Assembly: GCF_000708675.1 (NCBI RefSeq)
Contig: NZ_JELR01000002.1
Location: forward strand, 434,001 to 498,000
Direction: 5' to 3'
Origin: Microbulbifer sp. HZ11
Lineage (GTDB): Bacteria; Pseudomonadota; Gammaproteobacteria; Pseudomonadales; Cellvibrionaceae
Length of the DNA stretch: 64,000 nt
Shown here: positions 6,278-23,147 of the stretch, piece after piece
Layout: each line of letters starts with the position of its first letter
How positions within the stretch are numbered: position 1 is the stretch's first letter
Position numbers and translations under genes: made by a program
The notes under the pieces: generated by a model
Database searches by the model: none
What the model saw: only the letters and a program-made list of their open reading frames with translations
Told to the model about the DNA's origin: nothing

Positions 6278-6318
6278 GCTGCCCTCAATTGCATCGCGAA
6301 TAAACACTGAATTCATTT

Positions 6319-6356
6319 AAGCACTGGCCCAAAATCTAGTTTGGACCAGTGCTTTT
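6319..6356 (+). terminator. Terminator between yebC-like gene and brxL
   Basis: A perfect 9-bp inverted repeat (AAGCACTGG at 6319-6327, CCAGTGCTT at 6346-6354) is followed on the plus strand by TTTT. It sits 42 bases past the YebC-family stop and 49 bases from the brxL stop, between convergent genes, so it probably ends the plus-strand transcript and perhaps both. Confidence 0.7.
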
Positions 6357-6404
6357 AGAAATCTTATAGGATCCGGCGCTACATCACTGATTTATTTCTG
6401 ATAC

Positions 6405-8447
6405 CTACTCCACAATTGCTTTTAAGAGCACGTCCCGCCCATCAGAATAAAATTGAATATCAATCTTGGTCGCCATGTCATCCGACAGGTCAAATAACTG
6501 CCGGCGGCAGGCAACGGGCATCAGCAGTGCAGTCGCGCCCTTTTCCACGGCGATTTCCGCAATCGTCACCGGATTGTGGATCGGCTCCACGGAGCCTCCC
6601 AGATTAATCTCACCCACAATGATCAAACCGCCGCGCACGCTTTTCTTAAGTAGCGCCGTGCTCAATGCGACCAGAGACGCCATGCCGAGCTTGGCACCCG
6701 ATTTGGAGGCGTCGAATGCTCGCAACTGAACCGTAAACTCGTGGTGGCGCGGATCCTTGTCTCCCACCAACTGCGCAGACCGGGCGTACAGGTTCTGCTC
6801 CGCATAACCGATGCTCTCCTTGAACGCGGGCGGTACTGGCTTGTTCAGGACCTTGACGCCGGACCCTGGACCCTCGTTCACCTCAATCCGGTACAGGCCG
6901 GGATGTTCCTCACCGCCTCCCGGAGAGATGGTCCATACCTGGCCAGGCTCCAGGGGATCGTCACCAATGCTGTTCTCGCTCTGAAGCTCCGGGGTGGAAA
7001 CAAACTTCTCGACACCGTCGGCGCCCATGACATAGCTGAAATGGGTATTCCTGAATTCTGCCGCACCAATCCGCTTCTGCTGTTCCTTCACCCGACGCCG
7101 GGCTTCCATGGCAATGCGAACGGCCCATTCGATATCTTCGTCCGAGACCTCATCGTCACCGGGATAAAGCAGCTTGAGCAGGCCGCTGACCGTTTTGTTC
7201 ACCGCATTGGTATCCCGCCCAGACAGCGCGCCACCAAAAAACACCCGGTTCTGAATCAGGCTGACCCGGCTCTGATTGCGCAACTGGCTCCAGCACTCCG
7301 ACAGGAAGTCGCTGACCAGGCCGAAATGGTCGGTTAATAGCTCCTTACTGATTTTCGGCACGTCCCAGCCTGGCAAGAAGGCGTGGATACGGTCCATGAA
7401 AGCCGTATCATCCTTCATTTCCGGGGGCATGGGGCCGAACAGGTGGCCTATCCGCTGCTGATGTTCCACATCCACGTCAAAGTTGCCCACCAGTACGATG
7501 CTGCCATCGGCTCGAATGTTTTCCTTGCCACGGCTGAACTCACCCGACTCCATGTAGCCCTTCATGATGTTCACGCCGTCCTTCTGGTCGAAGGAAATAC
7601 CCGAGACCTCATCGAAGCAGACCACGTCGTACTGACAGACCAAACCCCGCTGGCCGCTGGCGTTGTTGACGAACATCTTGGCCACGGTGGCTTTCCCACC
7701 GGAAATCAGGTGGGCGTAGGGTGACACCTGCTGGAACAAATGGCTCTTACCGGTACCCCTGGGGCCGAGCTCCACCAAGTTATAGTTACGCTCAACAAAG
7801 GGCACCATACGCAACAAAATTGCGTCCTTTTGCCGCTCCGACAAGCCGCTGGCCTCAATCCCCGTGGACCTTAGCAGCAGCTCTTTCCACTCCTGCGTCG
7901 TAAATTCCTTCCGGGCCTCTGCAAGGGTATCCAAAACGTCGCGCTTGGAGAGCTGGATCTCCCGCAGGGCTTCGACACCGAAGGGGCGACCATTACTTTC
8001 CTGGGCAATGGCAGCATCGTAATTGAGCGTTACCTCGGCATAGAAACCGCCGGTCAGCATCCGCTCATGCTCGTTTACCAAAGACGGTGAGATCCGCACG
8101 TCGTTCAGGCGGAGGCTGGGGAGGGACGCGATATAGGAGTCTGTTTTCGCATCCAGGCGGGCGGTAATCAGGTCGATGATTTTAACTTCACCGTTCTCCC
8201 TGGCCCGGGCTTTGAACAGCTCCTCCTCACCGGCCTTGACGGTGCGAGACTTGAGCTGCCGCTGCACGATCTCCAGGCCTTCGTTGATCTCTTCCTGGTC
8301 GGTGCTTGCGCAATATCGCCCGAGCAGGAACTCAACTACATAGGTGGGTACCGGGAATTGGCGGCTGAAGGTTCGTACCAGGTCCTTTCGCACCAGGTAG
8401 CCATCCAGGGCCGTTGCGGCCTTTCTGTCGATTTCGTCCAATTCCAT
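6405..8447 (-). CDS. brxL: BREX AAA+ protein BrxL (Lon-like)
   Basis: The 680-residue product is the last gene of the operon. It has an N-terminal BrxL domain, an AAA+ ATPase core with Walker A GPRGTGKS near residue 230 and Walker B VVCFDEV near 280, and a C-terminal Lon-protease-like fold (about 590-680). In that fold the position of the Lon catalytic Ser (GPSAG) reads GAKLG, and the Lys-bearing segment reads HNPVT, so the Ser-Lys dyad appears lost. This agrees with reports, as I recall them, that BrxL acts as a DNA-binding ATPase rather than a protease. I chose the ATG at 8447 over the GTG one codon upstream because AGAGG lies eight bases away. It starts 12 bases after the pglZ stop. Confidence 0.93.
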   Translation of the reverse strand: MELDEIDRKAATALDGYLVRKDLVRTFSRQFPVPTYVVEFLLGRYCASTDQEEINEGLEIVQRQLKSRTVKAGEEELFKARARENGEVKIIDLITARLDAKTDSYIASLPSLRLNDVRISPSLVNEHERMLTGGFYAEVTLNYDAAIAQESNGRPFGVEALREIQLSKRDVLDTLAEARKEFTTQEWKELLLRSTGIEASGLSERQKDAILLRMVPFVERNYNLVELGPRGTGKSHLFQQVSPYAHLISGGKATVAKMFVNNASGQRGLVCQYDVVCFDEVSGISFDQKDGVNIMKGYMESGEFSRGKENIRADGSIVLVGNFDVDVEHQQRIGHLFGPMPPEMKDDTAFMDRIHAFLPGWDVPKISKELLTDHFGLVSDFLSECWSQLRNQSRVSLIQNRVFFGGALSGRDTNAVNKTVSGLLKLLYPGDDEVSDEDIEWAVRIAMEARRRVKEQQKRIGAAEFRNTHFSYVMGADGVEKFVSTPELQSENSIGDDPLEPGQVWTISPGGGEEHPGLYRIEVNEGPGSGVKVLNKPVPPAFKESIGYAEQNLYARSAQLVGDKDPRHHEFTVQLRAFDASKSGAKLGMASLVALSTALLKKSVRGGLIIVGEINLGGSVEPIHNPVTIAEIAVEKGATALLMPVACRRQLFDLSDDMATKIDIQFYSDGRDVLLKAIVE

Positions 8448-8459
8448 CACATTTGCCTC

Positions 8460-10802
8460 TTAAGAAAGAGCCCCACCAATCACGGTGCCCGTCTGGGCAA
8501 CCAGAGAACCATTTTCGTCGAGCAGAACAACCACCGCTTTCTGCCCTTCCAGATCTTCATTTTCGACAACCACGGAAGCGGTGCCATTGGCCTTGAGCGG
8601 CTTCGAGCCAACCACCACACTGCTGGCCGCTTCACCCGCGCGGGTACGGATATCCAGCGTGAGCCCTGAATAGTCACCGGCTACCGCCACCGTACAGCGC
8701 AACCCCTTCCACACCAGGTCGGTAAACTCGATAGCCCCTTGGGCGGAGGCGCCGCCAGTCACCACCAACTGGAGTGTCAGGCACTCTTGTAGGCTTAGGC
8801 CGCCGTGAGCATAATCCTCGCCCTTCTTGAAACAACTGACGCCATCGGCCAGGGCAAAGTAGTGGCTAGGGTTCCAGTACCAGGGGAAGAGTCGCTCCTG
8901 GGTTTCCGCACCAGCCTTCAGCGCGGCACAGCGCCCCCATTTGCTCTCAGCCAGTACGCTGGGCAAATCAATTTTGGGTAGCCCCCCGGGCAGAAGCAGC
9001 CAGCCGTGATCGGTGACGACACGCACACGCTTCCAGCCCGCCGCCAACAGCTCAGTAATGCGGTTCTGCACTTCATTCAAAAGGCTTTCCAAGTGTTTGG
9101 CCAGCTTCCAGCCACGGTCGTGACCTTCATGGTCGATGTCGCCAAACTCACACCAGGCGAAACCTTCCCCCTGGCCGTCCTCTGTTCGATCCAGCAGCGT
9201 CCAGCCGGCGTCCTTCAGCAGTTTCTTGAGGTGATAGCCACCCTTGAGGGACTGGCCGGTCGCCGCCACGGCGGGCTCGAAATCCGCGCTGCCATCGTCC
9301 CCCCGAATTTTATCCCGGACTGGCGCCACCGCCGCCTTGCCAGTGGCGGTGACGCTGGGCAAAGCGGCCCAGGTGGGCGCCTCGTCCACATCCAGCCCTG
9401 AAGCTTCTAGCATCTCTGCCAGCCGCTTGCCCGTATCAAAGCGCAGCCCATCGACAAACAGCACACAATCCCCGGGACTGGCCGGAAAGGGGGGCGCTGT
9501 TATGCAGGAGCCACCCGGGTAGGATGCGCCATCAACGATCTTCTGCAAGTAGCGGGCGGATTCTTCCAGCCACGGAAGGTAAACCGCCCGGACTGCCGTT
9601 GTGACAGCCTCAAAGTCAGACGTACTCTCCACCTGGGCCAAGGCGCGCATTACGCCGTCATCCACTTTCCAGCCGGCGTTGGTATACCCGTCTGTCAGAT
9701 CATCCACAGAGCCCGCCGCCAGAGACGATTTTGCATAGTTGGCCATGGCGGCCAAGTGTTCCAGTGCACACGCCAGCGGAGCTTCCCCTAGCTCCGCCCA
9801 TACCAAGGATCGCCTGCCGCCGTGTATCTGTTCGAGCTCCAGTATTCTGGCCCGTGCCTGGTGCGCAGGAGCCTGGGCCAGAGCCAGCAAGTCACGGCGC
9901 AGGTGGTCTTCCTGGCCCTGGTTCCACTGAGGCCAGCCGCCCGCTACGGTTTCATCGGCAAACAGATCAAAGGCCGGCGGTTGGCATTTGCGAATTTGGG
10001 CCGGGATATGGGGGTAGCGGTGGGGCGCCTCGCAGAAACGTTGCCAAACCGCCTGCCAAGGCCCCTCGTGGGCCGCAAGCTTGGCACATCCTGCCAGCAC
10101 CCCCTCATGCTGTGGGTTGAAAGCCAACTGGGAGGTGCATACCGCCACGAAAGCCTGCCATTCGTTCTCACCCCTCGCGGCCTGGAACGCATCGCCCTGG
10201 TCCAGCCATAGCAGCAGATCCCGGGTGGGATCACCGCCGGTTAACAGGGTATTGAAGTAGTCCTTATCCAGGCGCTTACCTTTGAGCAAATCCACGTCTT
10301 CGTCGAGCAGTCGGTACAGCGCCAGTTGCATGGCGTGTCGGGTTTCGCTGTCCTGCGCTACATCAAGGCCAAGACCACCCTGGTCCGACTTGAGATAAGC
10401 AAGGATGGTCCAGTCCTTGGCATTCACCTGGGACCAGATCACGCCACGGTATTGCAACTCAGCCAGCGGCTTGAGCAAGTCCGGGCAACCTTCCACCGCC
10501 CGCAGATCCTGACGGCTGACGCCGGGCAAGTAGAGAATGGGGATCGTCCCATCTGGCCGGGACACATCATCCACCAAGCCGGCGATCACGCAGCGCAGCC
10601 AGATCGCTGGGCCGGTGCGTTTTTCGGGGGCATAGTCACCCAGCACCAGAAGCTCCGGCAGTTCCGCCTGAAGGACTGGAATAACCGCTTCCCATTGCCG
10701 GTCACGGTCTGGCCAGAGGAGGCAGGCAGGGGCAACCTGGATATCCGGGTTATAACCCCCCGCATCGCGAATGGCCGTCAGCAGACAATCGAGCGCTTTC
10801 AT
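8460..10802 (-). CDS. pglZ: BREX phosphatase-domain protein PglZ
   Basis: The 780-residue protein matches the type I BREX PglZ family. The C-terminal half has the alkaline-phosphatase-superfamily PglZ domain, with metal-binding segments VLFVDGLRFD (near 450) and VVTDHGWLLLPGG (near 600). PglZ is essential for BREX defence and interacts with PglX; its chemical activity in type I systems is unsettled. The start ATG at 10802 has AGGGAA about six bases upstream. It lies 43 bases after the DUF262 gene and is closely followed by brxL, so co-transcription is expected. Length is typical and no key segment appears missing. Confidence 0.93.
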   Translation of the reverse strand: MKALDCLLTAIRDAGGYNPDIQVAPACLLWPDRDRQWEAVIPVLQAELPELLVLGDYAPEKRTGPAIWLRCVIAGLVDDVSRPDGTIPILYLPGVSRQDLRAVEGCPDLLKPLAELQYRGVIWSQVNAKDWTILAYLKSDQGGLGLDVAQDSETRHAMQLALYRLLDEDVDLLKGKRLDKDYFNTLLTGGDPTRDLLLWLDQGDAFQAARGENEWQAFVAVCTSQLAFNPQHEGVLAGCAKLAAHEGPWQAVWQRFCEAPHRYPHIPAQIRKCQPPAFDLFADETVAGGWPQWNQGQEDHLRRDLLALAQAPAHQARARILELEQIHGGRRSLVWAELGEAPLACALEHLAAMANYAKSSLAAGSVDDLTDGYTNAGWKVDDGVMRALAQVESTSDFEAVTTAVRAVYLPWLEESARYLQKIVDGASYPGGSCITAPPFPASPGDCVLFVDGLRFDTGKRLAEMLEASGLDVDEAPTWAALPSVTATGKAAVAPVRDKIRGDDGSADFEPAVAATGQSLKGGYHLKKLLKDAGWTLLDRTEDGQGEGFAWCEFGDIDHEGHDRGWKLAKHLESLLNEVQNRITELLAAGWKRVRVVTDHGWLLLPGGLPKIDLPSVLAESKWGRCAALKAGAETQERLFPWYWNPSHYFALADGVSCFKKGEDYAHGGLSLQECLTLQLVVTGGASAQGAIEFTDLVWKGLRCTVAVAGDYSGLTLDIRTRAGEAASSVVVGSKPLKANGTASVVVENEDLEGQKAVVVLLDENGSLVAQTGTVIGGALS

Positions 10803-10845
10803 ACGATTCCCTGTCTTGTGGCCCTAAAATAAAAAAAGCTTCCGA

Positions 10846-12540
10846 TCAGCATGCTTTCAGATCCCACTTCTCAACCAATAGGTCTAACAGCTCACTTTGC
10901 CTTCTCGCTACAATGTCCGGCGTCCATTCCTGCTCATTGAGAACTTGAGTCGTAAGCGTGTAAGAGCTAACGCCTGATCTGCCCCGGAAATAGGCATCTT
11001 TCTTGCGGTCAAAGTCATAATTTTGAGCCTGAGAGTTGCGCCGCTTGTTCAAAGGGACGAGATTCGCCAAGCGGTGAACCCAGACTTCCCTTGCCTGAGC
11101 GTCTGGCCAATCTGTTTCCCACTGGCTCTCTTCGCTTACCGTTTGTGGCAAAACGTGCTCAATGGTTAGCAGGCTCGCATCGTAACTGGCTGCCCCATCC
11201 GACAGAAACGAGTCCAACCGGAGAATCAGGTAATTTCTCCTTCGAGCTGTCAGTGTGTAGATACCGCCATCCAGGACTTTCTTCATTGCCTGCTTTTCGT
11301 CCTCGGTTAGCAAAACCGCTTGCACTGGGTTATCGGCACTGTGAGCACCCATCAACTCCGAGATCACCTTGGAGTACCGTTCAATCCTCTCATTGACGTT
11401 CTTTGCCGTCAGATGCAGGCACGCAGCAAGCCGCTCAAGTTTTTCCATAAACCAGAGAACGTAATCAGGTCTGTTCTTCTGTTGGGACAAGAAAAGCATT
11501 GCCGGCGGTACCCAATCAGAGTTGTCGATTCGGTTTAGCCAACGCAGGTAGGTATTAATCTTTTGAGCATCCACCTCGGCCTGATAGCTTGCAGAGCGCA
11601 GGATCGATAAGGCTTCCGCATAGGGTTCCAATACATCATCCACCAAAGCTTTTGGCGAAGACACATTGGATAGAACATGCTGCCGAAACTCCTCCAACAG
11701 AGCTTTCTTGGCTTTTTCGCGGGCGTAAACCATTCGAACGTAGGCGAACAAGTTATTAAAGCCGGCACGGCCAAGCTCAACCTCCATGTCTTCCCATTTC
11801 TCGTTGTAGAGCTCCTGTTCCTCCGATGATTCAATCGCGCCAATAATGTCGGCCTTGATGATATCGGTAGGCTGCAAATCAAGACCACGACTGTTCATCA
11901 CAGAGAAAACCCGAAATGCGGACTGCTGGCTGGGCGTGGAAACTGCCACCAGAAAGCAGCGCTGCAGCAGGAAACCGACAAACCCCTCAAGTGAAGTCGC
12001 ATCGTCACCAAAGGAGCGATCTATCCGGCTCAGCAGAAGGCGGGCGTTGGCCTGAATGTTTTTTCGGGATTCGTTCTGAAGTGACTCAGTATTGAGACCC
12101 AGCAACTCATCAAACTGAAGCGTTTGCACGTACTTCGCAAAAAACTCTTTATCCCGCTCACGAAGCGTGAGACGAGGTTTTGCGGCTAACTGCTCAAATT
12201 TGTTCCCGGCTTCGACAATGTAGTTTTTAAGCAAGGCTCTATCGTCTGGGGCCGAGCGTGCAGCCAATGCGGCAAGCAAAACAGTGAGGGTTGTCAGTCG
12301 CTGTTGACCGTCAATGACTTCAGCCGCAGGCTTCCCCTCCTCCTTGATCAGTACGATGCTACCGAGAAAGTAGCCCTCATCCAGTTCAGAGCGGTAGAAG
12401 TCATACAAGTCATCGAATAACTCTGATGCCTGATCTACTGTCCAGGCATACGGGCGCTGGTAGGAAGGGATGACATACTCGAACTCTGAGCTGAAAATTT
12501 TAGCCAACGGATACTCAGCGCCACTGATCTTTTTCGCCAT
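10846..12540 (-). CDS. DUF262/DUF1524 protein, GmrSD/BrxU-like
   Basis: This 564-residue protein combines an N-terminal DUF262 (ParB-like, GmrS-type) domain carrying VIDGQQRLTTL near residue 77 with a C-terminal DUF1524 HNH-type nuclease domain carrying IEHVLPQ near 462 and NLVPLNKRRNSQAQN near 500. Single-chain GmrSD enzymes are type IV restriction nucleases that cut modified-cytosine phage DNA in a nucleotide-dependent way. BrxU, found inside some BREX clusters, has this architecture. The start codon lies one base past the pglX stop (TGAC-ATG), which implies translational coupling. Type IV restriction is inferred from domains and context; I cannot tell whether it is an orthologue of BrxU. 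Confidence 0.82.
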   Translation of the reverse strand: MAKKISGAEYPLAKIFSSEFEYVIPSYQRPYAWTVDQASELFDDLYDFYRSELDEGYFLGSIVLIKEEGKPAAEVIDGQQRLTTLTVLLAALAARSAPDDRALLKNYIVEAGNKFEQLAAKPRLTLRERDKEFFAKYVQTLQFDELLGLNTESLQNESRKNIQANARLLLSRIDRSFGDDATSLEGFVGFLLQRCFLVAVSTPSQQSAFRVFSVMNSRGLDLQPTDIIKADIIGAIESSEEQELYNEKWEDMEVELGRAGFNNLFAYVRMVYAREKAKKALLEEFRQHVLSNVSSPKALVDDVLEPYAEALSILRSASYQAEVDAQKINTYLRWLNRIDNSDWVPPAMLFLSQQKNRPDYVLWFMEKLERLAACLHLTAKNVNERIERYSKVISELMGAHSADNPVQAVLLTEDEKQAMKKVLDGGIYTLTARRRNYLILRLDSFLSDGAASYDASLLTIEHVLPQTVSEESQWETDWPDAQAREVWVHRLANLVPLNKRRNSQAQNYDFDRKKDAYFRGRSGVSSYTLTTQVLNEQEWTPDIVARRQSELLDLLVEKWDLKAC

Positions 12541-12541
12541 G

Positions 12542-15500
12542 TCAGACTACCTTCGCTTTGTTGGTTTGTTCTCGCGCAACCTGTTTCTCTGCCAGGGTCA
12601 GATGATGATCATTAATCCGCTCGCCACCAAAGGTTTGATACCAGGGCGCTGACTCAACATCCTTGCCACGGTCTTTGGTCCATTTGATGTTGGGTTTGTC
12701 GCGCAGGATGCCGGCGCCTTTCTTTTTGACGTCGCCTACGGTCATGAAGGGGCGTATATTCAGGCGGACGCCGTCGTTGAGGTCCGGGTCCCAGCCTATG
12801 GGTTGTTGTTCGATGGGCTTCCAGCGGACGAATATGTCGTAGGGGGCTTCGCCTTCGAGGATTTGCTCCAGCTTCTTTTTCAGGGATTCAGCGGCGGCCA
12901 GGCGCTCCTCGGCGCCGTCTACACCGCTGGACTGGTCCTGCTTCTGGCGGCTGATCCAATCGCCCAGGTAGGTGTAGATCAGGGTTTCCAGATTCTTGCG
13001 GTCAAGTTTGTGGTAGTTGACCAGGGCGGCGAAGCCGTCGGGCAGGCCATCCCAGAGGTGCCAGATAAAGGGGCGGTGCTGGAAGAGTTTGCAGTGTTGC
13101 GTGAAGAACTTGTCGCGCAGCCAGGTTTCCAGGGTCTTGCCGGCGTGGTCGGCATTGTTCAGAAGTTCAGCTAGAACATCGTTAGACCAGGCGTCGCCGT
13201 AGGCAGCGGCCAGCAGGTTCAACAGACGGTCGGCAGCGGAGGCTTCTCCGCGCACCGGAGGAATACAGACGATGCCGTCGTCATCGGCGAAGGGCAGCAA
13301 TGCCTCGCAGCGCTTCACCCATTCACGCTGCTCATCGGCCAACTCCATGTCGGTATCCAGTTCGGCGGGCCAGCGGTAGCCGAGCAGGCGGGCAACGGCG
13401 ACCTGCAGGACTGTGTCGTCCGTACGAAGTGGGCCTTCGGCTGTCCACTTTTGTTGTTCTTCCCAAACGACTGAGCCGCAAGGGTGGCCGTGGAAGATCC
13501 ATTGGGTCGGATCGTCGGTGTAGGGCTTGGGTAAACCATTGGGATATTTCGTTTCGGCGACTTTTTTCCAGCGATCGATGTCAAAGGGAATCTTTACCAG
13601 AGTCGCATTAGTTACGTTCTTTTTCTTATCAATTTTTCTGACTTCATCATGAAATTCTTGGCTTGAACAGAAACACCAAATGGCAGGTAAATGATCCTCT
13701 TTAAAAGGAACTATCGCAGCACTTGATTGATCATAGATATTACCAGAATAGAGCGTAGCCGGCAGAGCTCTTGTCTGTCGCACGGCAATACCAGTATTCC
13801 CCCATGCTTCAACACCTTGAATTCGCGCTTGGCTTGAGGAACTAAGGCTGCCACTTCCATCCTCCCACCGGACAATACCATCCCTTCCATTGAAGAGCTT
13901 TATTACATCACACGGTAACTGGAAAAAGGACCAAGTAGTTTGGTTCTTGTGGTCTAGGATCTCCCAAAACTGATATAAGTATCTAGGCGCATCGCCATTT
14001 TGAAGCCCAACGTAAGATCCCGCGATAGTGGAAAGTAGCGGGTTTTCAGATGCCTCGAAAAGGCCAATTCTGAAATCGGGATTAGACAGCTGTTGACTCT
14101 GAGAATATCTTTCTGCGACCGCATTTTGGATATACAGGTTTTTTTGTGACGCTCCTTTTTGAACGGTTGCATTGATGCCGAGATAGCAATTTTCCGGCCT
14201 TGGTTCGCCCTTTGTGAAAGAAATTAAAGCAGCAAAGGCCCCGGCAGCCTGCGGGCTTTCAAACGCATGCTCCCCAAGGTCGATCAAACTATTCCAAGCA
14301 GCCTCCTTCAACAGGCGCTCACGCACTTTGTCATATGACTTCAGAAACAGCCATTCGTGAGGGGTGACCACCGATGCATTTCCACCTAAGGCAAGAATAT
14401 CCTTTATCCGCAATATAAAAGCAGTTGCTAAATTCGATTTTCCAGCTGCAAAGTTTTTCTCAATATAATCTTGGCTTGCCTCAACTAGCTGCTTTGACTC
14501 CTTGAATGGAACATTTGTGATTACCCATTGAAATTTTTCTGCAAGAATCTTGGCAGCGTTAGCGGTGCCCTTTGCAACCACGCCAAGCTCACTTTTCTCA
14601 ACATCTTTTAGCTCAGACAATGCTTGCGACAGAAGTGGCCCCACTTCTTCCCACTGCAATTCAAACAACGCCCCCTTGCCCAGGCTTACTTCGGGATTGA
14701 TCAGGCTGCCAAGTATGGGAGCGTCCTTGAATTGTTTGTATAGCTCTTCGAGTGCAAGCCGCAGATCATTGCTGTCTCCGGCCAACGCCAACCATTCCTC
14801 CTTCTTTGCGCTGATCGACAAGCCAGAGCAGGCAACATTCAGCTCCGGCAATGGCCGGTAGCCGCCGGCGCCGGGGTATTTCCAGGCGGTCAACGCCAGC
14901 GCAAAGGCGGCCAGTTCCACACAGCGCTGGTCCAGCTCCAGGCCGTGAAGGTTTTCCCGCAATACCGCGTCCACGGCATCCCGGGGGGACAGGCCTTCCA
15001 GTTCCATGCGCATGGGTACCAGCATCAGGAAGGCGGCCACCAGAAAGTGGCCGGAGCCGCAGCAGGGGTCCAGGGTTTTCAGGTCGGCCAGTTGTTCCGG
15101 CCAGGCATCGAAGGTGCCGGCAGCCGGTGTCCATCTCTTGTTACCAGCCCCATCTTCCTGTTTCACAAACCGCAGGTACTCCAACGGCACACCAGGGATG
15201 GCTGCCTTGTGGCGTAGTTCGTCTTCGCTTTCGGCGTGCTTCAGGTCGCTTTCACTCAGCTGCCGGGCCGCCCACCAGGCGCCCAGAGAGTTGTCGAGCA
15301 GGAAACTCACCATGTAGGGCTCGGTGAAGAGCTGGGTGACGGCGGGGAGCTCCCGGGCGCCGATCTTCACTTCGGACTGGTTGACCTGTTCCTTCTTTTT
15401 GGCCTGCCAGAACTGGTAAACCCAGCCCAGGCTGTCGGAGGCGGTAAACACCTCCAGCGGCAGGCCCGCGACCTGGCGTTCCAGGGCCTGTTGGTGCTCC

Positions 15501-15988
15501 GGTGGCAGGCTGAGCTGGAAGACCGGAGAGTCCAGCCGGAAAATCTGCGGCAGCATACGGGCCGCATAGCGGGCGGCCAGTTCCCAGCCGTTGGCGGCGC
15601 CTTCATCGGCAGCCAGGTCTTCACACTCTTCCAGGGTGATGGCCACTGGTTCGTCCGGGTCCGGGTACATCAGCAGGTCGTTTTCGGCCAGGAAGCGGGC
15701 AAAGAGCATGCGGTGCCAGTGCTCGTAGGCAACCTCCTCCACCAGGCGGTCCATGGTCTGGGCTTTTGCGCCGTTACCGCCGCCGTTGAGGGCGTCGCCC
15801 AGTTGGCGGCCATGGGCGCGTAGCTTGCGGCGCAGCTCCCGGTCGGTCTCGCTCAAGTGCGAAGCCGGTGCCGGGTCGCCAACGCCGAGCTGCTCCAGGG
15901 CGGCGCGGGCACCGGTTTCGGCGGTGTCCCGGGCGGCCTTGACGGCGCGCTCCAACTGGCTTCTCAGAGTCTTGTCGAGTGGCTGCAT
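12542..15988 (-). CDS. pglX: BREX adenine-specific DNA methyltransferase PglX
   Basis: The 1148-residue protein is the BREX methyltransferase that marks host DNA at a non-palindromic site. Motif I (LDPCCGSGHFLVAAF) lies near residue 310 and binds S-adenosylmethionine. Motif IV, usually NPPY, reads NVPF near 491, an altered form I believe occurs in some PglX proteins. The N-terminal region matches type I BREX PglX and the C-terminal third is conserved. The DNA between about 13600 and 14700 (residues 430-796), covering motif IV and the presumed target-recognition part, is visibly richer in A and T than its flanks. The ATG at 15988 has GGAAG about 11 bases upstream. A 151-base leader with inverted repeats precedes it. 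Confidence 0.93.
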   Translation of the reverse strand: MQPLDKTLRSQLERAVKAARDTAETGARAALEQLGVGDPAPASHLSETDRELRRKLRAHGRQLGDALNGGGNGAKAQTMDRLVEEVAYEHWHRMLFARFLAENDLLMYPDPDEPVAITLEECEDLAADEGAANGWELAARYAARMLPQIFRLDSPVFQLSLPPEHQQALERQVAGLPLEVFTASDSLGWVYQFWQAKKKEQVNQSEVKIGARELPAVTQLFTEPYMVSFLLDNSLGAWWAARQLSESDLKHAESEDELRHKAAIPGVPLEYLRFVKQEDGAGNKRWTPAAGTFDAWPEQLADLKTLDPCCGSGHFLVAAFLMLVPMRMELEGLSPRDAVDAVLRENLHGLELDQRCVELAAFALALTAWKYPGAGGYRPLPELNVACSGLSISAKKEEWLALAGDSNDLRLALEELYKQFKDAPILGSLINPEVSLGKGALFELQWEEVGPLLSQALSELKDVEKSELGVVAKGTANAAKILAEKFQWVITNVPFKESKQLVEASQDYIEKNFAAGKSNLATAFILRIKDILALGGNASVVTPHEWLFLKSYDKVRERLLKEAAWNSLIDLGEHAFESPQAAGAFAALISFTKGEPRPENCYLGINATVQKGASQKNLYIQNAVAERYSQSQQLSNPDFRIGLFEASENPLLSTIAGSYVGLQNGDAPRYLYQFWEILDHKNQTTWSFFQLPCDVIKLFNGRDGIVRWEDGSGSLSSSSQARIQGVEAWGNTGIAVRQTRALPATLYSGNIYDQSSAAIVPFKEDHLPAIWCFCSSQEFHDEVRKIDKKKNVTNATLVKIPFDIDRWKKVAETKYPNGLPKPYTDDPTQWIFHGHPCGSVVWEEQQKWTAEGPLRTDDTVLQVAVARLLGYRWPAELDTDMELADEQREWVKRCEALLPFADDDGIVCIPPVRGEASAADRLLNLLAAAYGDAWSNDVLAELLNNADHAGKTLETWLRDKFFTQHCKLFQHRPFIWHLWDGLPDGFAALVNYHKLDRKNLETLIYTYLGDWISRQKQDQSSGVDGAEERLAAAESLKKKLEQILEGEAPYDIFVRWKPIEQQPIGWDPDLNDGVRLNIRPFMTVGDVKKKGAGILRDKPNIKWTKDRGKDVESAPWYQTFGGERINDHHLTLAEKQVAREQTNKAKVV

Positions 15989-16060
15989 GTTCTTTTACTT
16001 CCCCAATCCTGAAAGTGATGCCACGGCTACGGCGTTGGTACCGTGAGAGCACTTTTTCCT

Positions 16061-16137
16061 GTCGCATCGGTGCGACTTGATATGCGCAATTTTACCAATA
16101 ATCGCATAGCTTGCGCATAGATTTTTACCTATGCGCA
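16061..16137. promoter_or_regulatory. Inverted-repeat cluster in the pglX leader
   Basis: TGCGCATAG (16112-16120) and CTATGCGCA (16129-16137) form a perfect 9-bp inverted repeat with an 8-base spacer. Another TATGCGCA is at 16081-16088 and a partial CGCATAG at 16103-16109. A separate repeat, GTCGCA-4-TGCGAC, is at 16061-16076. A weak minus-strand promoter (TGCGCA, 17 bases, TAAAAT) can be drawn between the half-sites. The cluster begins two bases after the stop of the upstream AlbA_2/wHTH gene and has no T-run, so an operator is more likely than a terminator. The binding protein is not known; the neighbouring wHTH protein is one candidate. Confidence 0.55.
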
Positions 16138-16139
16138 TT

Positions 16140-17873: not shown

Positions 17874-17878
17874 TCCCC

Positions 17879-17921
17879 TTATTTGACTGGCTCTTTATTT
17901 GACGGGCTCTTTATTTGACTG
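17879..17921 (-). repeat. 16-bp tandem repeat at the brxC stop codon
   Basis: On the plus strand, TTATTTGACTGGCTCT at 17879-17894 is followed by TTATTTGACGGGCTCT at 17895-17910 and the first 11 bases of a third copy at 17911-17921. The third copy contains the real brxC stop codon. The array therefore duplicates the end of brxC into the gap before the next gene. It is not a multiple of three, but it lies outside the reading frame. Confidence 0.8.
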
Positions 17922-20900
17922 AAATGGGCCCGTCTGGCAGCGCTGCCTTGAGTTGTTGCTTCACTTCCTCGGCCCAGGCATCGATGTCTTCGTCAGACTT
18001 CAGCGTGCGGCGGGGCACATGGATAAACTGGATCTCCGGCTCGCACAGCTCGGCTGCCGCCACGGCCACATTGTCAAAGCGGCTGGGAAGTGCGGCGACG
18101 CGATCAGCAAACATGGCCAGAGCGCACTGATCCAGCGTGTTCAACACCTCTTGGGTGGATTGAACCGCGACCTCGGGCTGATCCGCCAGGGTCAGGCGCT
18201 GGTCTGCCAACAGCTGGTTTCGCTGTTCGGGCTCCAGTTGCTGCCAGTTGCTGTCATCGGCCAGGCGAGCCATGCCTTGCTCGTGGCGTTTCTGGTAATC
18301 CTGGTCCAGTCGATTCAGTACATCCCGGAGCGCCTGTGTCAGGCTGGTAATCAGCGGGGCCACCGGGTCGGGGTCGGTCAGCAACTGTCGCTGCTGTTCA
18401 ATGGTTTCCACCTGAGCCCGGAAGACATCGGCATCGTCGAGCCCGCCTGCGTGGGACATCAATCGCTTCAATATCACCCAGTTGGGCCAGCGCTGGTGAA
18501 TGCGCTCCGAGAGGTGCTCCCAGGCCTCGATGCTGGAGACCAGCTCTTCGCGTCGGTTATAGAGCGCCACCAATTGCTCATTGCCGGCGGTGAGGCGAAT
18601 ATCGTCAAGAAAGCTGGTGTCCGGGCGCTCCGGTTTGGGCGCTTCTCCGCCGGCCTCGTCAGCCAGACCGGAAAGCTTCTGCAGGAATTGAGGCACATAC
18701 GCCAGCTCCTCACCCTGCTTGGCGGACAAGCCCACCTTCTGCAGCAGCTTACGGATCTGGATACGCTGGGGGGTAGTGACGGTGGCGGACTCTACTTTGA
18801 ACAGGGTTTTGCCAATGCTCTTGCGCTCCAGGCTGGACGGTTCAAGAGGTTGGCCGCGTTCGTCCTGGGCGCGGATAAGGCCAGCCACCAACAGGGCCTG
18901 AAGGCCACCGTCCACGGCGTCGCGGGACCAGCCATAGGGAGAGGACTCAAAATGGGTGCGAATATCCACGCCTTTTTTGCCGCCGGCAATGGCTGCCAGA
19001 ATGGCTTTGCACACTGGGTTCTTGGCCGGCTCGCCATCATCTCCCACGGCCTTGAGGGCGTCTGGGGCACCTTTCTGGGCCTTTTCGTAAACCTTGGACC
19101 AGCCGGCATGGTCAGCGGTATGGAAGTGAGGGTAAAGCCGTTGCAGGGCGTTGTTGGCGGCTTCCAGGATCATTTCCTGGAGATCGTTGCCCAGAATCTC
19201 GTTACCGCCCCCCTGGAAAACACGGGCTCCGGAGAAGGCTTCGTTTAGTAATTCCCGGATCTTGCCCTCAGCAGTCTGCTTGGTGGTTTCCATGGCAGCC
19301 CGTGCCTCTGTGCCCTCCGGGGTGTTGGGCACGCCTCGCTTGTCCAGGGTGGCACTGGCGGCCTTGTAGTCGATCAAATGGTGCCGCAGGTCATCCGCAG
19401 AGCGCTTGGGGATGAACACGAATACGGTGGGCGATTGATTACCGGCTTGCCGGGCATCGGCGCGTACGGAGTTCTCGTCGCCGCTCCACCCATCCCGAAC
19501 CCAGACGCAAATGCGTTGGCCGGCATCGTCTGGCAACTGTGCGTCGAATACCGGGTAGATATCGCGGGTGACTTTTGCATCGCCCTGAACCAGCGACAGT
19601 TTACGGGCCGCCTCGCCAAAGGTGCGGCGGATACGGTCATCGCGCTCGGCATGGATGCGATGCGCCTCGCTGGATAGGGCCGCGCGTTGGCTGAGAAATT
19701 CATCCGTCCAGGCGGCGCTCTCTTCGGTCTGGATGCGGTACTCATCGCCGACTTTCATCAGCAGCTCGCAGCGATCCAGCAATCCCGGAAGTTTGCTGCG
19801 CAGGCTGCTACTCCCGCTGGACAGGTCCTCGACAAGCAAGTCCGCCAGGGAATCCACCGTGGCACGAATGCCGACTTCGTTGTTCTGACCGCCCAGCTTG
19901 TTGATCAGGAACACCAGGCCACAGGCACGAGCCATCAGGCGTTCGTCGTCCGAGCCCTTGATCCAGCTCATGGTTTTTTCATGAACCTTGCGGGGCAGAA
20001 TGCGCGACTGGAGTAGTTTGTCGGCGGAATCGAAGTACAGGTAATCCCCTGGCACTACATAACCCAGCGGATCCTCAAGGTTGGTCTGAATGACCTTGTG
20101 CACCATGCTGAGCTGGTTGCGCAACTGGCTGTCGGTGCCCGTTTGATCCAGCACGCGAAGGGTGTTCTCCCAGAAACGTCTGCGAACCGGCAAGATGGGG
20201 TAGTCCTGCGGGAAGTAGGGCAAGTCATCCTGACGGTGGCCGAGGGTGGTCCCGGTCAAGTGCCTGGAGATTTCCCCCAGGTTGGTTTGCATGATCTGCT
20301 CAATGGGGGACTTGGCTTCCGGCTTCTTGGCCAGGATGACTTGGCGGATCACGGCATCCACATCGGCGTCCGAGAGCTCAACGCGGATCGTGAAACGGCC
20401 CTCGAGCTTTTTCAGGTTACTGGTGCCGGTAACGGCGGTCTGACCGGTACCAATGAACAGAAGCTTGCCAGCAAAGTTCTTGCAGCATGCTTCCACCACT
20501 TCCTGTACGGCGATGGAGCGCTGGCTGTCCTCGCCAATGAACTGCTGAACTTCGTCCAGAACGACCAACGTCAGCGGGAATTTGCCCTCTTGTGTCAAAG
20601 CCTGGCGAATGGCCTTGAGCATATCGTCACTGGAGATGTCTTGAACGTACGGATACAGGTTGTTCAGGGTTTCGACGCAAGACGCTGGTGTGGTAAACAG
20701 GGCTGGCTTGGCCTGTACCAGGGCATCGTGCAGACCCTCAGCTACGTAGAAATTATCCAGCTCTTCATTCCAGTCGAAGCCGTTGGCTTCCACCTGATTG
20801 CGCACCTGGTCATAGATGCCCTCGTGCCTGAGCCACATGACGAAGCGGGCAACCGGGTACTGCTCCGGCAGGTCCACAGACTTAAACAGAATTCTGAGAA

Positions 20901-21348
20901 GGGCGAGGCGCACGCTGCCGCTGGCACCGGAACCCAGGGTGCCGGAAGCGGCATGCAGGCCGCCATGACGCTTGGCTTGAGTGCTGAGTTCTCTCAGGTG
21001 GTCGCTGATGCCCTGGGGCAATTTGGCGATTCCCCGGGCCGTGGCTCCGTCTTCGAAGACGGTATCCACCCACAGTGCCCGCAGCATTTTGACGAGGTGG
21101 GATTTACCGGACCCATAGAACCCACTCACCCACACTGCCGGCTGCTGGGCCTGGTCGATATTCTTGAGGTAGGTTTCGAGGATGTGTGACATCCCTTTTT
21201 CGTACTGACCATCGCAAACGAACGTTTCCAGTTCGTAACGAAGAACCGCCAGGGCATGGCTGGTGGTTTCGTCGTTGACGCTTGCCACCCCTTCGTTGAC
21301 CAGCTTCCGGGTGGTTGGATCCTTCTGATAAATGTCACGATTCTTCAT
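17911..21348 (-). CDS. brxC: BREX ATPase BrxC
   Basis: The 1145-residue product is the large P-loop ATPase of type I BREX. Walker A (SGFYGSGKSH) lies near residue 80 and Walker B (LTLVVLDEVQQF) near 270. The long C-terminal part is the conserved BrxC helical region of unknown detail. BrxC is required for phage exclusion and in some systems also for methylation. The frame extends to a TTG at 21354, but the ATG at 21348 is preceded by AAGAGG at good spacing, so I chose it. It follows brxB by 14 bases and ends in a small tandem repeat. Length is close to the family norm. Confidence 0.94.
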   Translation of the reverse strand: MKNRDIYQKDPTTRKLVNEGVASVNDETTSHALAVLRYELETFVCDGQYEKGMSHILETYLKNIDQAQQPAVWVSGFYGSGKSHLVKMLRALWVDTVFEDGATARGIAKLPQGISDHLRELSTQAKRHGGLHAASGTLGSGASGSVRLALLRILFKSVDLPEQYPVARFVMWLRHEGIYDQVRNQVEANGFDWNEELDNFYVAEGLHDALVQAKPALFTTPASCVETLNNLYPYVQDISSDDMLKAIRQALTQEGKFPLTLVVLDEVQQFIGEDSQRSIAVQEVVEACCKNFAGKLLFIGTGQTAVTGTSNLKKLEGRFTIRVELSDADVDAVIRQVILAKKPEAKSPIEQIMQTNLGEISRHLTGTTLGHRQDDLPYFPQDYPILPVRRRFWENTLRVLDQTGTDSQLRNQLSMVHKVIQTNLEDPLGYVVPGDYLYFDSADKLLQSRILPRKVHEKTMSWIKGSDDERLMARACGLVFLINKLGGQNNEVGIRATVDSLADLLVEDLSSGSSSLRSKLPGLLDRCELLMKVGDEYRIQTEESAAWTDEFLSQRAALSSEAHRIHAERDDRIRRTFGEAARKLSLVQGDAKVTRDIYPVFDAQLPDDAGQRICVWVRDGWSGDENSVRADARQAGNQSPTVFVFIPKRSADDLRHHLIDYKAASATLDKRGVPNTPEGTEARAAMETTKQTAEGKIRELLNEAFSGARVFQGGGNEILGNDLQEMILEAANNALQRLYPHFHTADHAGWSKVYEKAQKGAPDALKAVGDDGEPAKNPVCKAILAAIAGGKKGVDIRTHFESSPYGWSRDAVDGGLQALLVAGLIRAQDERGQPLEPSSLERKSIGKTLFKVESATVTTPQRIQIRKLLQKVGLSAKQGEELAYVPQFLQKLSGLADEAGGEAPKPERPDTSFLDDIRLTAGNEQLVALYNRREELVSSIEAWEHLSERIHQRWPNWVILKRLMSHAGGLDDADVFRAQVETIEQQRQLLTDPDPVAPLITSLTQALRDVLNRLDQDYQKRHEQGMARLADDSNWQQLEPEQRNQLLADQRLTLADQPEVAVQSTQEVLNTLDQCALAMFADRVAALPSRFDNVAVAAAELCEPEIQFIHVPRRTLKSDEDIDAWAEEVKQQLKAALPDGPISVK

Positions 21349-21362
21349 TAACAACCTCTTAT

Positions 21363-21914
21363 TCAGTAATCCTTATCCGCCGTGATGGGCATGGCGAGAT
21401 AGTTCCACCCGTCGTAACCGTCCAGCAGTCGGTAGTTGTTGTTTTCGTAGCTTCCAGGGAAAAACACCAGCAACCGCCCGGGTACCCGAGGGGCAAGCTT
21501 GTCGACCACATCCTTCACCTTGAGGAAGCCGAACAGTGACCCAACGCCCTGGATTGCCACCACGGCGTTCTCATCAATATTGCGGCTGTCCAGAAAGCGC
21601 TCGAATTCGTCCACGATGTAATCAAGATACTTGGGCAGCACAGTGGCGAGTAAATGCGGCTTCTGGAAGTAGCTCTTGGCATAGCGCTGGCTACTGAGCC
21701 AGGCCGCAAAGGTGTTGGTCAAATCGAACAGCGCCCAGTCATGGCCGGCCTGTTTGGTGACAATTTCAAACTCATCGACCCGGGCCCGGAGCCAGCGCTC
21801 CTCGTTCTCGTTGTACACGCATAAAATGACGCGCTGTGCGGCAGCCGCATCGTCCCGCCAGGGGATGGATATATGCCTGCTGTAGGAATGTACTAACCGT
21901 TTAACCCTGCTCAC
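21363..21914 (-). CDS. brxB: BREX protein BrxB (DUF1788)
   Basis: The 183-residue product matches the DUF1788 family found in nearly all type I BREX operons. Recognisable segments are FLKVKDVVDKLAPRVPGRLL and VFFPGSYENNNYRLLDGYDG near the C-terminus. The molecular role is not established; it is needed for defence and methylation. Translation starts at a GTG (21914-21912) with AGGAG seven bases upstream. The gene overlaps the end of brxA by 14 bases, which implies translational coupling. No signal peptide or membrane segment is seen. Confidence 0.92.
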   Translation of the reverse strand: MSRVKRLVHSYSRHISIPWRDDAAAAQRVILCVYNENEERWLRARVDEFEIVTKQAGHDWALFDLTNTFAAWLSSQRYAKSYFQKPHLLATVLPKYLDYIVDEFERFLDSRNIDENAVVAIQGVGSLFGFLKVKDVVDKLAPRVPGRLLVFFPGSYENNNYRLLDGYDGWNYLAMPITADKDY

Positions 21915-22692
21915 GCAGCCACTCCTGTTCCTGCTGGTTGATAAGGCCGGGGAAAAGCACCTCGATCACATCCCCTACCCGCTTGAAGGTTATCCAGCCT
22001 TTGCGTGAGGCGCCCTCCGCGAGCTCGATGGCTTTATCGCGTGGGCAGTCGAGCAGTTTTATATATTCGGTGCGAAAGAGTTCCTGCCCTCTGGCTCCGG
22101 TCAGGTATCCGAGCAAAAGTGCGTATGAAACACTCCCCGAGGTTGGTGTGGGATGGGCGCGAATTTTTTTCACCTTACCGTTCAAGTGGCCAGACTTGGT
22201 CCAGCTTGAGTTGATGTTCTGCGCCGTCGATTTCAGGGTTGCCTTGCTGAAGCGGCCAGGTTCCTGGCTATCGATAAATTCTTCCAGGAACTCCCTGTTA
22301 ATCACTGTCCCTTCGGGACATTTCAAGATAAAGGGTGCCGTGGAGCGAAAGATGGAGTCACGAGCATAGGCGCACAGCGCGGCCAGCAGTGGTCGCCCCG
22401 CTTCATCTCGCTTCCAAAAATGCAGGAGGGAGCGAAACAGGATGTGGGCGGTATCCAGAGAATAGAGCTCCGCCAGGTGACGGTAGGTCAACCTACGGGT
22501 TTTTCCAGAGCGTTTGGCGAGGCAGTTGTCCTCTTCGACAGCTCGCAGGTAGTCGCCTTTCGGGGCATCTTTGCGGTCGACATAGCTAAGGAGCGCTGCC
22601 AGCTCGTCGAGCATCATGGTTCGGGCGCTGTGTACTCCTCCCCGCTCGAAACGAAACCCGAACCGGGCTAGCGGCTTATGATTTTTTGCCAT
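21901..22692 (-). CDS. brxA: BREX protein BrxA (DUF1819)
   Basis: First gene of the operon, 263 residues with the chosen start. The family is DUF1819, small helical DNA-binding proteins of BREX related in fold to NusB-type domains. The segment FGFRFERGGVHSARTMMLDE begins the family homology. The frame has three possible ATGs (22746, 22722, 22692). I chose 22692 because GAGGGG lies six bases upstream and the conserved region begins soon after; the longest form would add 18 residues. It is somewhat longer than the roughly 200-residue BrxA proteins I recall. No brxR-like gene lies upstream. Confidence 0.9.
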   Translation of the reverse strand: MAKNHKPLARFGFRFERGGVHSARTMMLDELAALLSYVDRKDAPKGDYLRAVEEDNCLAKRSGKTRRLTYRHLAELYSLDTAHILFRSLLHFWKRDEAGRPLLAALCAYARDSIFRSTAPFILKCPEGTVINREFLEEFIDSQEPGRFSKATLKSTAQNINSSWTKSGHLNGKVKKIRAHPTPTSGSVSYALLLGYLTGARGQELFRTEYIKLLDCPRDKAIELAEGASRKGWITFKRVGDVIEVLFPGLINQQEQEWLREQG

Positions 22693-22921
22693 TGTCGCCC
22701 CTCGTGTCACTTGCTCCGCCATTGCGTAACCACTGCTCAATCTCATTTTTTTTGACTTTCCATTAACGGCCTACGAGGGTGGGGTGGACAGAAGAATTCA
22801 GAGCTTTTCCCCGCGAACTTTCATTTCGGCCACAATTTCACGCCCCATGTAGAGTGCTGGAACTAGAAATACTCAGGCATTAGGGGCGGACGAACTTCAC
22901 CCCTTTCGATAAGCCAAAGCT

Positions 22922-22950
22922 AATATATAGCGGTAGGATAAAGCTTTAAA
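22922..22950 (-). promoter_or_regulatory. Candidate BREX operon promoter
   Basis: On the minus strand, TTTAAA (22950-22945), a 17-base spacer and TATATT (22927-22922) give a plausible sigma-70 promoter, with four and five matches to the consensus boxes. It would start transcription near 22915, about 220 bases before brxA. The 370-base stretch between tRNA-Leu and brxA holds this site and the tRNA terminator but no gene I can support. Confidence 0.4.
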
Positions 22951-22995
22951 CCGCCCAGCCTGAAGCACAGAGCCTAGCCAACAACTTGTAAATAC

Positions 22996-23061: not shown

Positions 23062-23147
23062 TGGTGCCCAGGGCGGGACTTGAACCCGCACGAGCATAGC
23101 TCACTACCCCCTCAAGATAGCGTGTCTACCAATTCCACCACCTGGGC
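23062..23147 (-). tRNA. leuU: tRNA-Leu (anticodon GAG)
   Basis: The minus strand folds into a class II tRNA of 86 bases with an encoded CCA. The acceptor stem pairs GCCCAGG with CCTGGGC. The anticodon stem CTATC/GGTAG holds the loop TTGAGGG, giving anticodon GAG for CUC/CUU leucine codons. It has a long variable arm and the T-arm GCGGG-TTCAAGT-CCCGC. Escherichia coli leuU also has anticodon GAG and also follows secG, which supports orthology. The BREX island lies at its 3' side. Confidence 0.97.

What the first reader, a model, noticed from the sequence alone, without database searches (positions are those of the whole stretch)
6405..22692. Type I BREX operon with two accessory genes
All six core genes are intact. 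An AlbA_2/wHTH protein gene is inserted between brxC and pglX, and a DUF262/DUF1524 protein gene between pglX and pglZ, with a one-base gap to pglX. The order brxA-brxB-brxC-AlbA_2-pglX-DUF262-pglZ-brxL may be a distinct sub-type that joins methylation-based exclusion with a type IV-like nuclease.
Basis: partly seen in the sequence, partly recalled or inferred. Interest (0 to 1): 0.72.

Follow-up and report, generated by a model that had tools for sequence, protein, structure and literature searches.

The report
BREX phage-defence operon with added nucleases
A complete bacterial anti-phage operon of a known kind (type I BREX) carries two extra genes, a Schlafen-like probable RNase and a modification-sensing type of DNA nuclease, each a type already reported with such operons; what stands out is that in the relatives examined extra genes occur only beside the DNA-methylating gene.

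Summary
In detail: an eight-gene operon on the minus strand, brxA-brxB-brxC-AlbA_2-pglX-DUF262/1524-pglZ-brxL, one base between pglX and DUF262, between yebC and tRNA-Leu, where some same-genus genomes carry other defence genes. Each accessory type is in print with BREX: GmrSD/BrxU (PMC8565348) and Schlafen-kinase-wHTH RNases (PMC12839542). A separate sub-type is not supported: of 63 loci in which both slots can be read (81 in all), only the window and Arhodomonas aquaeolei show this set without further genes, and the two genes do not co-occur beyond chance or descent. They differ in history: AlbA_2 tracks the core genes in divergence and follows the ATPase gene also in divergent BREX and a DUF499 system; GmrSD comes and goes more often. 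New as far as I searched: insertions of 300 bp or more lie only beside pglX (30 of 67 and 61 of 71; elsewhere 0 of 59, 62, 64), and a PglX cassette is swapped between near-identical operons. Best reading: BREX plus a modification-dependent nuclease plus an RNase back-up; both accessory functions are inferred.

The parts
21901..22692 (-). brxA (open frame extends to 22746)
   Evidence: PADLOC BrxA 359 bits, match from residue 21 of the longer frame
21363..21914 (-). brxB
   Evidence: Pfam BrxB 34.6 bits, PADLOC 270 bits
17911..21354 (-). brxC, P-loop ATPase
   Evidence: NCBIfam NF033441 977 bits
16140..17873 (-). Schlafen AlbA_2 + GHKL-like ATPase protein (P0001) with a C-terminal part that looks like wHTH in the model; slot 1 between brxC and pglX
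   Evidence: Pfam PF04326, PF13749; AlphaFold2 model pLDDT 82 matches 3lmm (E 1.2e-32) and Schlafen structures
15989..16139 (-). 151-nt gap between AlbA_2 and pglX with repeated TGCGCATA/TATGCGCA half-sites; possible promoter or operator
12542..15988 (-). pglX, N6-adenine methyltransferase, motif NVPF
   Evidence: PADLOC PglX 1740 bits; motif
13589..14788 (-). PglX residues about 401-800: exchanged cassette (presumed specificity part)
   Evidence: residues 451-800 at 18-56% per 50-residue block in 10 of 11 compared relatives; in 8 of these the flanks are mostly 80-100%; nucleotide profile of five relatives
10846..12540 (-). GmrSD-type DUF262 + DUF1524 HNH nuclease (P0002), slot 2 between pglX and pglZ
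   Evidence: Pfam GmrSD_N 141 bits, GmrSD_C 94 bits; PADLOC model Orf5 557 bits; DGQQR and EHVLP motifs
8460..10802 (-). pglZ, BREX-1 type B
   Evidence: NCBIfam NF033450 967 bits
6405..8450 (-). brxL, Lon-like AAA+
   Evidence: Pfam BrxL_ATPase 445 bits, TIGR02688 454 bits
5558..6277 (+). yebC, conserved flank on the brxL side (open frame listed as 5408-6277)
   Evidence: Pfam TACO1/YebC; same neighbour in 5 of 6 same-genus stretches compared
23062..23147 (-). tRNA-Leu(gag), conserved flank on the brxA side
   Evidence: ARAGORN and Rfam

Best explanation
This is a complete type I BREX operon (PglZ type B clade) in a chromosomal defence site between yebC and tRNA-Leu(gag). The core methylates host DNA at a PglX-specified site and blocks phage DNA that lacks the mark (established for type I BREX; inferred here). 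The GmrSD-type nuclease (P0002) adds modification-dependent DNA cleavage against phages whose modified DNA evades BREX, as BrxU does in pEFER (inferred from family). The AlbA_2 protein (P0001) is a Schlafen-type RNase gated by a GHKL-like ATPase domain, with a winged-helix-like tail; it most likely acts as a back-up effector when the BREX machinery is challenged (inferred), and its divergence follows that of the core genes (shown). The two genes occupy the two insertion slots that flank pglX in this clade. They are separate layers, not a pair selected together.
For: Families of all eight proteins. Insertions of 300 bp or more in 80 loci plus window: brxC-pglX 30 of 67, pglX-pglZ 61 of 71, brxA-brxB 0 of 59, brxB-brxC 0 of 62, pglZ-brxL 0 of 64. 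P0001: acids E27, D32, D69 match the spacing of the Schlafen13 triad (alignments; triad from passages of PMC5862951); N-box residues E302, N306, H310, D312 invariant in 27 sequences; fold matches 3lmm and Schlafen structures. AlbA_2 divergence tracks brxC, pglZ and brxL (Mantel r 0.73, 0.87, 0.90; n 16, 13, 12). P0002: DGQQR and HNH-type motifs, fold matches DndI, SspE, BrxU. BrxU restricts phages independently of PglX in pEFER (passages of PMC8565348). Schlafen-kinase-wHTH genes are reported linked to BREX/BR loci in at least 1017 taxa (PMC12839542 section 35, part 1). Other defence genes occupy the same site in three of five same-genus stretches with both borders (the other two were not scanned).
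Against: No experiment. D32 stands where Schlafens have Glu in all 16 slot-1 proteins, so RNase activity is uncertain. No Pfam HTH hit for P0001. P0002 is nearer to DndI and SspE than to BrxU, so a type IV target is not established. PglX scores under the NCBIfam BREX-1 cut-off. AlbA_2 needs 7 changes on the BrxC tree, at least 5 of them forced by supported branches, so it has been gained or lost repeatedly. For 8 of the 9 GmrSD genes of the >=60% clade divergence also tracks pglZ (r 0.90), against a pure cargo view of that clade. A review calls the type IV gene and the other antiphage gene pair in BREX loci extraneous to BREX activity (passages of PMC12707154), and removing the Salmonella pair left methylation intact (passages of PMC9009780).
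Confidence: 0.6

Rival explanations
1. P0001 is chiefly a regulator: its winged-helix-like tail binds the repeated half-sites in the 151-nt gap and controls pglX and the genes after it, much as BrxR controls other BREX operons.
For: The model of P0001 matches MarR/SelB winged-helix chains among weaker Foldseek hits (aligned part not shown). The gap after AlbA_2 is 106-219 nt in 16 of 16 slot-1 operons (in two of them the next gene is not pglX), and 4 palindrome-like hits (<=2 mismatches) lie within 59 nt of the window's gap out of 20 in 64 kb. 11 of 16 gaps hold an inverted repeat reached by at most 5 of 100 approximate shuffles. No ORF of 100 aa or more lies between brxA and the tRNA, so no brxR there.
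Against: The motif was read off the gap itself, so its count is post hoc; in the 8 diverged operons it has 0 hits in 6; 7 of the 11 inverted repeats are in the window and close kin. AlbA_2 and ATP-box residues are invariant, which a pure repressor would not need. No Pfam HTH hit.
Confidence: 0.2
2. P0002 reads the PglX mark on host DNA, as DndI and SspE read phosphorothioate, and is the DNA-cutting arm of this BREX variant.
For: Closest solved relatives by profile and fold are DndI (E 1.3e-40; TM 0.60) and SspE, ahead of BrxU (by profile two 20yv/20yw DUF262 chains come second). DndI is kept off self DNA by its mark (abstract and passages of PMC11662687). P0002 follows pglX by one base; a 67% relative and a 64% plasmid relative each follow a DPPY-motif methyltransferase gene by about 12 bp in another system.
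Against: Relatives at 58-63% stand without a methyltransferase found by motif scan (L087, L088, and L160 on a 6.5-kb contig). Residues for mark sensing were not compared. GmrSD is absent from 46 of 71 scorable slot-2 loci, so BREX is kept without it. BrxU works without PglX.
Confidence: 0.1
3. The two genes are passengers of a defence island that landed in the operon without functional link to BREX.
For: Slot contents vary widely (208 slot ORFs in 61 clusters); GmrSD presence needs 16 changes on the BrxC tree (59 rows). A review treats such genes as extraneous (passages).
Against: Insertions spare three of the five junctions (0 of 59, 62 and 64 against 30 of 67 and 61 of 71); AlbA_2 tracks core divergence and keeps its place after the ATPase gene in divergent systems.
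Confidence: 0.2

Closest known systems
Type I BREX with BrxU, pEFER of Escherichia fergusonii (PMC8565348, passages)
   Same: Six core genes plus a fused GmrSD (DUF262 + DUF1524) gene inside the operon beside pglX
   Different: There brxU lies between brxC and pglX and brxR/S/T lie upstream; here GmrSD lies between pglX and pglZ, an AlbA_2 gene takes the other slot, and no brxR lies before brxA. P0002 is nearer in profile to DndI than to BrxU.
Schlafen-kinase-wHTH effectors of BREX and BR systems (PMC12839542; abstract, passages, section 17, section 35 part 1)
   Same: Same kind of domain set (Schlafen, HATPase, wHTH), linked to core genes; GmrSD listed too
   Different: What I read gives no slot, no pairing with GmrSD in one operon and no descent test; figures and supplements were not seen
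StySA BREX of Salmonella Typhimurium (PMC9009780, passages)
   Same: Two-gene insert between pglX and pglZ; divergence inside pglX; island at tRNA leuX
   Different: The insert is an ATPase plus DUF4435, not GmrSD; no AlbA_2 is named in the passages
DndI and SspE (9jfl, 6jiv/7drr)
   Same: DUF262 nucleases with a DUF1524-type end, best fold matches of P0002
   Different: They act with phosphorothioate marks; this operon should make an adenine methyl mark
3lmm (DIP2311) and Schlafen N-domains (5yd0 and others)
   Same: Whole-length alignment of P0001 with 3lmm (TM about 0.5); AlbA_2 core with Schlafens
   Different: 3lmm is titled without a function; that Schlafens lack the GHKL-like domain is recalled, not tested

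Membership tests
Type I BREX | Six core genes brxA, brxB, brxC, pglX, pglZ, brxL in this order | tested here: met
Type I BREX | PglZ of a BREX-1 subfamily above curated cut-off | tested here: met
   NF033450 type B 966.8 bits, cut-off 400
Type I BREX | PglX above the NCBIfam BREX-1 cut-off (a score test, not a defining feature of the system) | tested here: not met
   NF033452 349 bits, cut-off 500, still the best NCBIfam hit; PADLOC PglX 1740 bits. Membership rests on the whole operon
Type I BREX | m6A at a 6-bp motif and exclusion of unmarked phage | not testable with these tools
   needs methylome and plaque assays
GmrSD/BrxU type IV restriction enzymes | DUF262 + DUF1524 domains with nucleotide-site and HNH motifs | tested here: met
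GmrSD/BrxU type IV restriction enzymes | Fold match to BrxU | tested here: inconclusive
   7p9m E 7.6e-6 but TM 0.31, behind DndI and SspE
GmrSD/BrxU type IV restriction enzymes | Cuts modified, not unmodified, DNA | not testable with these tools
   biochemistry needed
Schlafen-type RNase | AlbA_2 domain with three catalytic acids | tested here: inconclusive
   E27, D32, D69 at triad spacing; Asp for the second Glu in 16 of 16 slot-1 proteins
Schlafen-type RNase | tRNA/rRNA cleavage | not testable with these tools
   biochemistry needed
   2 of 63 readable loci with this set alone; Fisher p 1.0 for any GmrSD, 0.02 for the >=60% clade with close kin; 5 independent pairs, both ways, too few for significance

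The most novel reading that the evidence does not exclude
In this BREX clade pglX and its two flanks form a plug-in cassette: specificity segments and effectors are exchanged there while brxABC and pglZ-brxL stay fixed. P0002 is licensed by the PglX methyl mark (DndI-like), giving BREX a DNA-cutting arm, and the AlbA_2 protein senses the state of the BrxC-PglX complex and triggers RNA cleavage when it is inhibited.
Probability: 0.08. Interest if true: 0.75.

Novelty: new member of a known kind. Interest (0 to 1): 0.36.

Why it matters
How type I BREX stops phage DNA is not settled, and operon-embedded effectors are candidates for extra activities. The regularity that extra genes lie only beside pglX in this clade makes a simple prediction that can be tested on all BREX operons, and gives candidates (AlbA_2, P0002) whose link to the core can be tested by gene removal.

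Tried and rejected
Distinct eight-gene sub-type: rejected on frequency, co-occurrence and tree tests. Island flanked by a duplicated tRNA end: blastn-short of window 22960-23160 against 1-22950 gave only 10-11-nt matches, though one same-genus genome (L130) has a second match to window 22990-23084 on the far side of its insert. Plasmid carriage: no P0001 relative at E <= 1e-30 in 72,556 plasmid records; P0002 relatives in 100 plasmid records, of which four were opened and showed no annotated BREX gene in the stretch. Structured RNA: one Rfam hit in the window, the tRNA. Promoter and terminator scan of 6200-23200 was at shuffle level. TATGCGCATA (<=2 mismatches) and CTATGCG are not enriched in the whole window, only clustered in the 151-nt gap, and the pattern was read from that gap. 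Rows left out of counts: L063 (order broken) from the brxC-pglX gap count; L009 and L026 carry AlbA_2 (90% and 73%) but have no brxC match on the fetched stretch and are not among the 16; loci cut by contig ends are missing from the slot counts (67, 71 and 63 scorable of 81). L041's slot-1 ORF (109 aa, opposite strand, 285-bp gap) is counted as occupied (31 of 67) but not in the >=300 bp count. Some of the 208 slot ORFs are short or antisense and may not be genes. L076 was left out of the >=60% GmrSD Mantel set.
Full report
Observation. The operon is real, complete and as described, on the minus strand (one base between pglX and the DUF262 gene). It lies between yebC and tRNA-Leu(gag). Nine same-genus genomes were located by their tpiA gene and stretches of six were taken. 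In five of the six, yebC and tRNA-Leu flank 1.3-6.3 kb of other DNA; in the sixth, L126, no yebC match was found in the stretch. Ten proteins of four of these stretches were scanned (L126, L128, L129, L130; not L127 and L131). Inside the yebC-tRNA interval the hits are PDC-M65A and B (L128), IetA and IetS (L130) and a partial JukB-like match (L129); L126, without a known second border, gave a HamB-like helicase and an E1-E2 protein; three of the ten had no hit. So this looks like a defence site, and BREX is its occupant here.

Relatives. One scan of genome contigs with PglX gave 417 pattern matches, 404 of them relatives, of which the best 80 were returned; with the window this makes 81 loci. 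Core gaps of 300 bp or more: brxA-brxB 0 of 59, brxB-brxC 0 of 62, brxC-pglX 30 of 67 (L063, with broken order, left out), pglX-pglZ 61 of 71, pglZ-brxL 0 of 64. The set is chosen by closeness of PglX to the window, so the rule is shown for this clade only. A smaller draw not chosen by PglX agrees in outline: PglZ type B was found in 9 of 369 gammaproteobacterial genomes. Of eight further stretches taken, two are cut before pglX (L145, L149); in the other six the visible junctions away from pglX carry no insert, three (L142-L144) have no insert at all, and three (L146-L148) have inserts beside pglX, though in L148 the brxC and pglX matches are partial. Published cases fit: brxU between brxC and pglX in pEFER (passages of PMC8565348) and a two-gene insert between pglX and pglZ in Salmonella (passages of PMC9009780). 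A gene inserted after the methyltransferase gene is also reported for type 3 BREX (passages of PMC10799925). I found no statement of the rule in my eight literature searches (bear on it most) or in the passages read; the library lacks most subscription papers and all bioRxiv preprints, and figures and supplements were not seen.

Cargo. 208 slot ORFs (some short or antisense) fall into 61 clusters. Of 20 proteins scanned with Pfam, 13 had hits: AAA_21-type ATPases, DUF4276, DUF3644, AIPR, Fic, Schlafen AlbA_2, Hsp70, and a weak MarR-type HTH match; 7 had none. This resembles the effector catalogue in section 35 of PMC12839542 (part 1 of 2 read).

Two accessory genes, two histories. AlbA_2 of the window's clade occurs in slot 1 of 16 of 67 scorable loci; GmrSD of any clade in slot 2 of 25 of 71. 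Twelve more AlbA_2 proteins lie in slot 2; the 11 that were aligned show 20-26% identity to P0001 (the twelfth, L028, is a 231-residue ORF and was left out). On a BrxC tree of 63 rows AlbA_2 (16 rows) needs 7 changes, at least 5 of them forced by supported branches, against 14.6 when shuffled; on the 59 rows with slot 2 scorable any GmrSD needs 16 changes and the >=60% clade 6. AlbA_2 divergence tracks brxC, pglZ and brxL (r 0.73, 0.87, 0.90), GmrSD of all clades only weakly (r 0.33 with brxC); for a chosen 8 of the 9 GmrSD genes of the >=60% clade r is 0.84 (brxC) and 0.90 (pglZ), so this clade too moves with the core. Core yardstick: brxC-pglZ 0.97, brxC-brxL 0.89, brxC-pglX 0.59.

Place of AlbA_2 elsewhere. 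In draws of genomes not chosen by BREX, P0001 relatives at E <= 1e-40 were found in 5 of 369, 4 of 398 and 10 of 390 genomes, the window's own included each time: 15 distinct genomes. Three have the gene between brxC and pglX of this BREX clade (window, G202, G442). Six at about 30% identity lie after brxC of a divergent BREX with pglX further down: directly after it in the three whose ORFs I listed (L100, L120, L123), and at matching spacing by tblastn in L121, L124 and L125. One (56%, L119) lies in a system with a DUF499/HmaC-type ATPase, a DUF7680 gene, then AlbA_2, an HmaB-type methyltransferase and a helicase. Five have no BREX core by tblastn with the window's proteins: four at 27-31% (L092, L093, L099, L122) and one 53% fragment that runs into a contig end (L091) and shows no core gene in the 9.5 kb on its other side. 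So the place after the ATPase gene recurs across systems but is not universal.

Co-occurrence. In 63 loci with both slots scorable the table AlbA_2 by any GmrSD is 6/8/19/30 (Fisher p 1.0); for the >=60% GmrSD clade 5/9/4/45 (p 0.02), but four of the five doubles (window, L001, L002, L003) are close kin. Independent pairs on supported branches: 5, going both ways, too few to reach 0.05. This set without further genes: window and L061, 2 of 63; L001 and L002 have an extra 944-residue ATPase-type gene between pglX and GmrSD, L003 two extra ORFs between GmrSD and pglZ.

The AlbA_2 protein. Model pLDDT 82. Foldseek: 3lmm first, then Schlafen structures; a profile search agrees. Acids E27, D32 and D69 match the spacing of the Schlafen13 triad E205/E210/D248 (passages of PMC5862951; alignments). 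The GHKL-like N-box is invariant. There is no Pfam HTH hit; the winged-helix tail rests on the model and weaker Foldseek matches to MarR and SelB chains. RNase activity is inferred. After the gene comes a gap of 106-219 nt in all 16 operons (in L055 and L059 the next gene is not pglX), 151 nt here, with repeated half-sites in the window and near kin. Of 36 scorable operons without a slot-1 ORF, 29 have brxC and pglX within 35 bp.

The GmrSD protein. Motifs intact. By profile DndI comes first (E 1.3e-40), then two DUF262 chains (20yv, 20yw), SspE, and BrxU far behind (E 4.5e-4); by fold DndI (TM 0.60), SspE, BrxU (model pLDDT 78, weak in the HNH part). P0002 relatives at E <= 1e-60 were found in 9 of 369 gammaproteobacterial genomes. 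By motif scan (N/D/S-P-P-Y/F/W only, which would miss NVPF), a 67% relative (G352) and the 64% one on an Acinetobacter plasmid (in two pieces) each follow a methyltransferase gene by about 12 bp and precede a 1011-residue helicase gene; in G334 and G277 the next gene bears an NPPY or NPPF motif; L160 (short contig), L163, L165, L087 and L088 show no such gene in the stretch, and L161's one motif-bearing frame is on the other strand and not adjacent. So it is a nuclease that moves between contexts and often sits beside adenine-type methyltransferases.

PglX. Compared with 11 relatives, residues 451-800 of PglX fall to 18-56% per 50-residue block in 10 (401-450 too in 8 of them); in 8 of the 10 the flanks stay mostly at 80-100%, L061 and L068 being diverged throughout; L001 shows only a milder dip. 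The other genes of some of these operons are up to 99% identical to the window's. Motif IV reads NVP[YF] in 77 of 81 PglX rows and NPPY in 4; the window has NVPF. That this motif is catalytically sound is not shown.

Verdict. A new member of a known kind: type I BREX with two effectors of published types. The order is not a sub-type. The pglX-centred insertion rule and the recurrent place of AlbA_2 are the parts worth a specialist's look.

Noticed in passing
window 13589-14788; L002-L007, L009, L023: PglX residues about 401-800 are exchanged as a block between otherwise similar BREX operons; G+C is lower here (51-53%) than on the AlbA_2 side (65%), as it is in the GmrSD gene that follows.
   Followed up: partly
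pglX motif IV, window about 14510: NVP[YF] in place of NPP[YF] in 77 of 81 PglX rows of this clade.
   Followed up: partly
window 15989-16139: Repeated TGCGCATA/TATGCGCA half-sites between the AlbA_2 gene and pglX; the pattern was read off the gap, so its significance is unproven.
   Followed up: partly
window 17879-17910: Two 16-nt near-identical tandem units (94%) between brxC and the AlbA_2 gene.
   Followed up: no
yebC to tRNA-Leu interval, L128-L130: Recurrent defence site in the genus: different defence genes in the same interval; L130 shows a second copy of the stretch matching window 22990-23084.
   Followed up: partly
L119 (G789): A 56% AlbA_2 relative in a DUF499/HmaC, DUF7680, HmaB-type methyltransferase, helicase system.
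   Followed up: partly
L159 and L086: GmrSD relatives between a methyltransferase gene and a 1011-residue helicase gene; a DUF4391 gene is annotated upstream in L086.
   Followed up: partly
L070, L071, L076: A second PglX-like gene of about 1100-1190 residues lies in a slot, as if two specificities were kept side by side.
   Followed up: no
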